Shown: piece by piece, positions 25,622-26,803 of the stretch
Position numbering within the stretch: the first letter of the stretch is position 1
Layout of the letters: every line of letters starts with the position of its first letter
Origin: an uncultured Chlorobiaceae bacterium
Lineage (GTDB): Bacteria > Bacteroidota > Chlorobiia > Chlorobiales > Chlorobiaceae
Length of the DNA stretch: 64,000 bases
Reading direction: 5' to 3'
NCBI GenBank assembly: GCA_903824045.1
Contig: CAIJVD010000024.1
Coordinates: 1-64,000 of the forward strand
Notes under the pieces: generated by a model
Seen by the model: only the letters and a program-made list of their open reading frames with translations
Databases searched by the model: none
What the model was told of the DNA's origin: nothing
Position numbers and translations under genes: made by a program

Positions 25622-25697
25622 AGAGAGCGATTTAGGGGACGCTCTCTACAAACTCGACTTAAGAGATTTAGGGGACGCTCTCTACAAACTCGACTTA
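25622..25697. repeat. REP-like hairpin and 36-bp-period direct repeat beside the RAYT gene
   Basis: Two direct copies of a 33-base unit lie at 25629-25661 and 25665-25697, period 36. With 25622-25629 (AGAGAGCG) as left arm and 25640-25647 (CGCTCTCT) as right arm, the first copy folds into an 8-bp hairpin with a 10-base loop; the second copy keeps only the right half. On the minus strand the foot of the hairpin reads GTAG, the tetranucleotide recognised by REP-associated transposases. The last three bases of the second copy are the RAYT stop codon. Confidence 0.7.
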
Positions 25698-26666
25698 TCG
25701 GTGATGCCGCTTCACAATTTTTTCCACGGCGGCACCAGATATTCCAAGCAAACGCGCCGCTCCGGCATAACTCATCCCAAGCTCCTGCACATACTCCAGC
25801 GCCAGCTTTTTCCTCAACGCCGAACACTCCCGCATTCGACACCCTCCCTGCAATGATTGTAACATTATACCAGTCTCCTCACAAGCTCTTGCTAATCGTT
25901 CGGCAGCTTCAAGCTCCTTGGATGCCGCCGGAAGTCGCGCTTTTACTGAATCTTCAGCTTCAACAAGAATCTCGCGAACAAAATCTCCGCCACCCAAAAT
26001 CCGCTCATCACTGAACTGCTTCTCCCCACGCTTTCTCAGCGATTTCACCTCCGACCATCCCCCTATCGAACGAATCAGCCCTCCCCCGATCAGTTCCGGT
26101 TGACAACCAAGTCCGCTCTCGGATGTTACAAACTCCAGGTACGCGTTCCTGGCTGATGATGCTCGCTGTCCAAAATATCCAAGCACATACTCTCTATCCT
26201 GCCAATCATGCTGAATCCTGTTCATCACTGTTGCATGACCGCTCCACCGATAACGCTCAAGCTCTGCAATTGAACCAACAATCCCTGCTCGCACTGGGTT
26301 GAGGTGAATGTAGCTGACCAGCCTGAGAAAGTAGGGCTCTTCTTCGCAGACAATCGATTTATACCTGTTCTGGAAAAGATAGCCATGCCTCTTGTGCCTG
26401 CGGTTGTAACCTGATGCATAAACGGTTAACAGCTTGCGCATGAAGGTTGACAAACCAGCTGCTCCGCTTCTCAGCAGAATATGCGCATGATTGGTCATAA
26501 GCGCCCATGCGTATATTTTTGTTCCGGTTACGGCAGATACGTTCCCCATCCGGGAAACAAAAAATGCTCGATCAGCATCGTCGGAAACAATGCTCTTCCC
26601 TTCAATCCCCCGCACCATAACGTGATGCAAGGTGCCCGGCGCATCCAGTCTCGGCCCTCTTGGCAT
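25695..26666 (-). CDS. REP-associated tyrosine transposase (RAYT)
   Basis: A 323-residue single-strand HUH endonuclease of the IS200/IS605-related Y1 'TnpREP' family. The HUH pair is His60-Ala-His62 in MTNHAHILLR. Tyrosines at 83 and 87 (TVYASGYNRRH) are the candidates for the nucleophile, followed by RHGYLFQNRYKSI and the SYIHLNPVRAGIV segment typical of the family. Compared with short RAYTs it has a C-terminal extension with a helix-turn-helix near 295-320 (MSYAGAARLLGISGAAVEKIV). These proteins cut and join REP hairpins, are usually single-copy and not flanked by inverted repeats; the hairpin at the stop codon fits this. The gene appears intact. Confidence 0.92.
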   Translation of the reverse strand: MPRGPRLDAPGTLHHVMVRGIEGKSIVSDDADRAFFVSRMGNVSAVTGTKIYAWALMTNHAHILLRSGAAGLSTFMRKLLTVYASGYNRRHKRHGYLFQNRYKSIVCEEEPYFLRLVSYIHLNPVRAGIVGSIAELERYRWSGHATVMNRIQHDWQDREYVLGYFGQRASSARNAYLEFVTSESGLGCQPELIGGGLIRSIGGWSEVKSLRKRGEKQFSDERILGGGDFVREILVEAEDSVKARLPAASKELEAAERLARACEETGIMLQSLQGGCRMRECSALRKKLALEYVQELGMSYAGAARLLGISGAAVEKIVKRHHR

Positions 26667-26803
26667 GGCTGTATCTGATCAGGATTTAAATATTAATAAT
26701 TATCGAAATATTACACCACAAATACAAATACCAATCAATAAGTTTAGTTAGTCGCCAACGTCCCCGTTATTCCGGGAAATAGGAGAAAGAGATTCCTCAC
26801 CCA

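What the first reader, a model, noticed from the sequence alone, without database searches (positions are those of the whole stretch)
25622..26666. RAYT with a GTAG-footed REP-like hairpin fused to its stop codon
The transposase gene ends inside a 33-base direct repeat whose neighbouring copy (period 36) completes an 8-bp hairpin. On the transposase strand the hairpin starts GTAG, the tetranucleotide that TnpREP proteins recognise in gamma-proteobacterial REPs. The protein also has an HTH-bearing C-terminal extension not found in the short RAYTs. This predicts a dispersed REP family in this phylum using the same GTAG rule.
Basis: partly seen in the sequence, partly recalled or inferred. Interest (0 to 1): 0.6.

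Follow-up and report, generated by a model that had tools for sequence, protein, structure and literature searches.

The report
Transposon end, not GTAG hairpin
The repeat at the end of this Chlorobium transposase gene is the doubled right end of a small mobile element whose ends also lie scattered, without the gene, through the genome; it does not follow the GTAG hairpin rule of enterobacterial and pseudomonad REP sequences.

Summary
In detail: a 323-aa Y1 (HUH) transposase on the minus strand ends inside a 36-bp tandem repeat (33 bases identical), and an 8-bp hairpin is present. In 22 complete relatives from 12 Chlorobium genomes, left and right ends match each other within an element (12.7 of 16 inner bases; 6.6 across elements; 0 of 20,000 shuffles) and diverge together with the transposase. 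Only GGGACG is shared by all. GTAG stands in 2 of 34 end units of this genome, both in the window, and the end itself does not fold. The gene fits the known TIRYT/TIRtron group (TnpA-Y1 subclass 2.1), not GTAG-RAYTs. The predicted dispersed family does exist, in another form: 34 end units here against 1 for the reversed pattern, about 28 without a transposase, often head-to-tail and just 3' of genes. In one relative (G021) a hairpin version of the end reached 29 copies with no transposase in the assembly. How the ends spread is inferred; no clean empty site was found.

The parts
25695..26666 (-). tnpA: 323-aa Y1/HUH transposase (TIRYT-like)
   Evidence: ORF; PF01797 E 4.7e-8; dN/dS 0.07-0.20 against seven relatives (0.12-0.20 for the four nearest)
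26481..26492 (-). HUH motif NHAH (residues 59-62)
   Evidence: N59, H60, H62 invariant in the alignment of 31
26310..26312 (-). presumed catalytic Tyr119 in YIHLNP
   Evidence: Y119-P124 invariant in the alignment of 31
25701..25832 (-). C-terminal helix-turn-helix-like region (residues 279-322)
   Evidence: HTH_23 sub-threshold; predicted helices
26739..26765 (-). left TIR GGGGACGTTGGCGACTAACTAAACTTA, 98 nt upstream of the ATG
25671..25697 (+). right TIR, proximal copy GGGGACGCTCTCTACAAACTCGACTTA; contains the stop codon
25635..25661 (+). right TIR, distal tandem copy (36 bp outward)
   Evidence: not shared by other copies

Best explanation
A TIRYT element (TIRtron): a Y1/HUH transposase gene between two terminal inverted repeats that start GGGGACG and continue with about 20 element-specific bases. 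Shown: the element anatomy, matched ends, ends that diverge together with the transposase, purifying selection on the gene, several divergent copies at different places in many Chlorobium genomes with many truncated remnants, and solo copies of the end in this genome and relatives. Inferred: the transposase recognises the inner TIR bases as single-stranded DNA, nicks at the GGGG/flank border with Tyr119, and moves the element or just one end. The tandem right end and the shorter outward duplications ('stutter') at many solo ends are read as by-products of repeated nicking and joining or copying at that border. The solo ends of this genome match the 82%-identical paralogue on contig C13 (GTTCACAAC type) better than the window copy, so that paralogue is the likelier source.
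For: Matched left/right ends in 22 elements, 0 of 20,000 shuffles as good; TIR similarity follows protein similarity, Mantel rho 0.47, 0 of 5000 permutations; GGGGACG TIRs also flank relatives in records named Desulfobacteraceae, Desulfosudis and Nitrospirae, two with 26-27 perfect bases; dN/dS 0.07-0.20; catalytic residues invariant; fold nearest to TnpAREP and IS608/ISDra2 transposases; 34 end units against 1 control in this genome and 29 against 0 of a variant in G021; head-to-tail pairs spaced 36, 38, 38, 38, 42, 60 and 85 bp; solo ends absent from the aligned orthologous intergenic regions of other species; copies up to 17 matches per genome, many truncated.
Against: No clean empty site: species are about 80-90% identical in DNA at best, intergenic regions are too diverged, and the loci tried were rearranged. 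The window copy's own ends have drifted (9 of 16 inner bases match), so this copy may no longer move. No two copies in this genome are recent duplicates (82% identity). No movement was observed.
Confidence: 0.75

Rival explanations
1. A GTAG-type RAYT with a REP family: the transposase recognises GTAG at the foot of a hairpin and has spread it through the genome.
For: Same protein superfamily and fold; GTAG and a hairpin are present in the window; a dispersed unit family exists.
Against: GTAG in 1 of 26 right ends and 0 of 36 left ends; 2 of 34 units in the genome, both in the window. Units do not fold. No other copy of the window repeat. FQ replaces W-Q/E in the guide-recognition region (PMC6006769). 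NCBIfam REP_Tyr_transpos scores 60.6, below its cut-off of 80.
Confidence: 0.04
2. The solo ends are dead remnants: whole elements inserted and the rest was deleted, leaving one end by chance.
For: Truncated copies and fragments are common in the genus.
Against: About 20 loci keep a near-consensus end with no exact GGGACG partner end in the 1-2 kb stretches read and, genome-wide, no transposase remnant beyond the three Y1 genes detected; bias to one orientation relative to the upstream gene (13 against 3); in G021 18 identical copies with no transposase.
Confidence: 0.2
3. A domesticated DNA-binding or regulatory system: the transposase is kept for a host function and the ends at gene 3' borders are binding or RNA-processing sites.
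For: Purifying selection; low copy number and old copies in this genome; most classifiable solo ends lie just 3' of a gene with GGGG first.
Against: Patchy presence (32 of 61 genomes searched), many decayed copies, species-specific ends; solo ends missing in the orthologous regions aligned. Gene-end position is also where tolerated insertions accumulate.
Confidence: 0.12

Closest known systems
TIRYT / TIRtron (Di Nocera et al. 2013, PMC3733652)
   Same: Y1 transposase between TIRs rather than GTAG REPs; TIRs can overlap the gene ends; TIR families scattered as singles, dimers or groups in some genomes; ends start GGGGWS.
   Different: Ends here read GGGGACGY rather than GGGGWSAS; no Chlorobium example is named in the text; solo units here are mostly head-to-tail or single and not self-complementary (except in G021).
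TnpA-Y1 subclass 2.1 (Quentin et al. 2018, PMC6006769)
   Same: HUH core, FQ motif, Y[IV]HLNP motif, C-terminal HTH_23-like domain, no GTAG REP beside the gene.
   Different: Longer (323 aa against a median of 238); matched TIRs and solo ends shown here for this lineage, which that paper left for further analysis.
RAYT / TnpAREP with REPs (E. coli, Pseudomonas, Stenotrophomonas)
   Same: Superfamily and fold; short units scattered near gene 3' ends.
   Different: No GTAG guide, no conserved hairpin, C-terminal HTH, inverted ends.
IS200/IS605 (IS608, ISDra2)
   Same: HUH-Y1 catalytic domain.
   Different: No subterminal hairpins in the ends; element-specific TIRs; Y motif ends in NP, not Q. TnpB was not searched for.

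Membership tests
TIRYT / TnpA-Y1 subclass 2.1 | HUH and Y---NP motifs | tested here: met
   NHAH and YIHLNP; N, both H and Y invariant in the alignment of 31
TIRYT / TnpA-Y1 subclass 2.1 | C-terminal HTH domain | tested here: met
   HTH_23 E 4.5e-4 but below the gathering score; helical C-terminus in the model
TIRYT / TnpA-Y1 subclass 2.1 | gene flanked by matched terminal inverted repeats | tested here: met
   (22 elements); the window copy's own ends have diverged
TIRYT / TnpA-Y1 subclass 2.1 | TIR motif GGGGWSAS (seen in most, not all, described examples) | tested here: inconclusive
   GGGGACGY here: the first six letters fit, then G instead of A; the paralogue on C35 has GGGGTCAG, which fits
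RAYT with GTAG REPs | GTAG/GTGG at the foot of flanking hairpins | tested here: not met
   in the window AG of GTAG is inside the stem
RAYT with GTAG REPs | cognate REP family in the genome | tested here: not met
   The exact unit occurs only in the window; the dispersed family is a non-palindromic end without GTAG
RAYT with GTAG REPs | NCBIfam REP_Tyr_transpos cut-off | tested here: not met
   60.6 against 80 bits
IS200/IS605 | subterminal hairpins in both ends | tested here: not met
   End units have no or marginal structure in DNA folding, except the G021 and CCTGAA types
active insertion sequence | empty sites or observed transposition | tested here: inconclusive
   Species-specific presence, but loci too diverged or rearranged

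The most novel reading that the evidence does not exclude
Chlorobium shows how REP-like repeats can arise from transposon ends: a non-palindromic TIR is spread as solo, head-to-tail units by the element's transposase, and in G021 a few base changes made it a self-complementary hairpin (GGGGACACTCATGACTGAGTGTACTT) that was amplified to 29 copies, partly as inverted dimers like REPINs, with no transposase left in the assembly and without any GTAG guide.
Probability: 0.3. Interest if true: 0.6.

Novelty: new member of a known kind. Interest (0 to 1): 0.4.

Why it matters
Where REP sequences come from and how TIRYTs work are open: the 2013 and 2018 surveys left both for later. One genus here offers many elements whose ends diverge with their transposases, solo ends in various states, and one hairpin family that looks derived from such an end. 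This makes the step from transposon end to REP testable, and corrects the idea that GTAG recognition extends to this group.

Tried and rejected
Exact search for the 28-mer of the repeat: only the window. A pattern with TTAGGGGACGT showed pairs elsewhere in this genome and led to the dispersed family. MITE hypothesis: no inverted exact GGGACG partner beside the solo ends in this genome, so not ordinary two-ended MITEs; inverted dimers do occur in G021. Relation to CGTC-tagged REPs (reported in Chlorobi, PMC3733652): those are hairpins with a CGTC foot and 4-5-nt loops; the ends here are not hairpins, so the CGTC in CGTCCCC is not taken as the same thing. Empty sites: attempted for five solo loci, the rpoD-downstream element (shared by G007, G015 and G000; rearranged in G026) and two elements of G015; none clean. 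Sequence search of solved structures with protein and profile: no Y1 match; the fold search did find TnpAREP.

Full report
What is there. The window lies in a Chlorobium genome (G000, 2.09 Mb, 37 contigs; named relatives, nearest by this protein Chlorobium ferrooxidans with 86% identity). On the minus strand, 25695-26666 encodes a 323-aa protein with a Y1 transposase domain and a weak C-terminal HTH_23 match. The stop codon lies in the proximal of two 36-bp tandem units. The hairpin is as described, but one arm is outside the repeat, and two of the four GTAG bases are paired.

The repeat is a transposon end. Upstream of the ATG, at 26739-26765, is the inverted partner GGGGACGTTGGCGACTAACTAAACTTA; the right end reads GGGGACGCTCTCTACAAACTCGACTTA twice. 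The assignment rests on the family. Relatives were found in 32 of 61 genomes, up to 17 matches per genome. In 22 copies with both ends readable, from 12 Chlorobium genomes, the 16 bases after GGGACG match between left and right end at 12.7 positions on average, against 6.6 for ends of different elements; no shuffle of 20,000 came near. Protein similarity and TIR similarity rise together (Mantel rho 0.47, 0 of 5000). TIRs of the same start flank relatives from records named Desulfobacteraceae, Desulfosudis and Nitrospirae. The window copy is among the least matched (9 of 16), so its ends have drifted although its gene is under purifying selection (dN/dS 0.07-0.20).

GTAG. The position that reads GTAG in the window reads GTTG, GTCG, GTCA, GTTA, ATCA, TTTA, TTCA and more in other copies: GTAG in 1 of 26 right ends and 0 of 36 left ends. 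The end unit alone does not fold. The rule is refuted for this family.

Dispersed copies. The exact repeat is unique to the window. The generalised end, GGGGACGYTCNNNACNANNTNNACTT with at most 2 mismatches, hits this genome 34 times against 1 for the reversed pattern; 6 hits belong to the two complete elements (window and C13), 28 are solo (at most 3 mismatches: 37 against 6). The pattern was written from right ends of complete elements plus the C6 hits. Most solo units are the GTTCACAAC type of the C13 paralogue (82% identical protein); seven are a GTTCCTGA-like type whose cognate transposase was not found here. Similarity ends after about 27-28 nt. Units are single or head-to-tail, spaced 36, 38, 38, 38, 42, 60 and 85 bp (36 being the window and 85 the C13 element), and several show shorter outward duplications of flank plus partial end, for example AACTTAGGGGAC twice at C23:93937. 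With mechanically called ORFs of at least 90 aa, 13 of 16 classifiable solo loci have the GGGG side next to the 3' end of the upstream gene. Orthologous intergenic regions aligned from other species lack the units. Other species carry their own versions; G021 has 29 units of a hairpin version, 18 identical, several as inverted dimers, and no Y1 transposase in a 96%-complete assembly.

Function. The model is nearest to E. coli TnpAREP bound to a REP (4er8) and to IS608/ISDra2 transposases; the HUH and Tyr residues are invariant. Shown: anatomy, matched ends, co-divergence, selection, solo ends. Inferred: single-strand nicking at the GGGG border by Tyr119, recognition through inner TIR bases, one-ended or trans-mobilised spread of solo ends, and tandem or stuttered ends as by-products.

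Known kinds. Di Nocera et al. 2013 (PMC3733652) named TIRYTs, Y1 transposases between TIRs, some with scattered TIR families. Quentin et al. 2018 (PMC6006769) placed most of them in subclass 2.1, with HTH_23-like tails and no REPs. In E. coli TnpAREP the GTAG motif is essential, less strictly so in other RAYTs (PMC8266576). This element fits the TIRYT description; neither text names a Chlorobium TIRYT, but only main texts were read. New here are the link between end and transposase divergence, the head-to-tail solo ends, and a possible end-to-REP conversion in G021.

Limits. No strain-level comparison and no clean empty site; several loci were rearranged. MAG assemblies break at these repeats, so copy numbers are lower bounds. 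Solo-end counts rest on a pattern and its reversed control.

Noticed in passing
L202-L215, L221 (G021): REP-like hairpin GGGGACACTCATGACTGAGTGTACTT in 29 copies, many at contig ends, some as inverted dimers, in a genome without a Y1 transposase.
   Followed up: partly
L098 (G000:C7:1500-8600), L216 (G007:C42:91500-108000): Several end-like units in one orientation, 1-7 kb apart, with shared flanks and Rfam group II intron matches; a repeat array of unclear nature.
   Followed up: partly
L007 (G000:C35:69474-70007): A third, distant Y1 gene flanked by a 23-bp perfect inverted repeat GGGGTCAGGTCTTGTATTTTGAC, which fits GGGGWSAS.
   Followed up: no
L022, L051, L055: Elements lying inside or next to fragments of other copies of the same transposase (nested insertions).
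   Followed up: no
L222, L223 (G026), L231, L232, L233: Element just downstream of a conserved gene (probably rpoD) shared by three species; in G026 the same element and right flank sit beside a near-identical terminator elsewhere, pointing to rearrangement at the terminator.
   Followed up: partly
L037 against L246: In G015 the element replaces most of a histidine kinase gene that is intact in G007.
   Followed up: no
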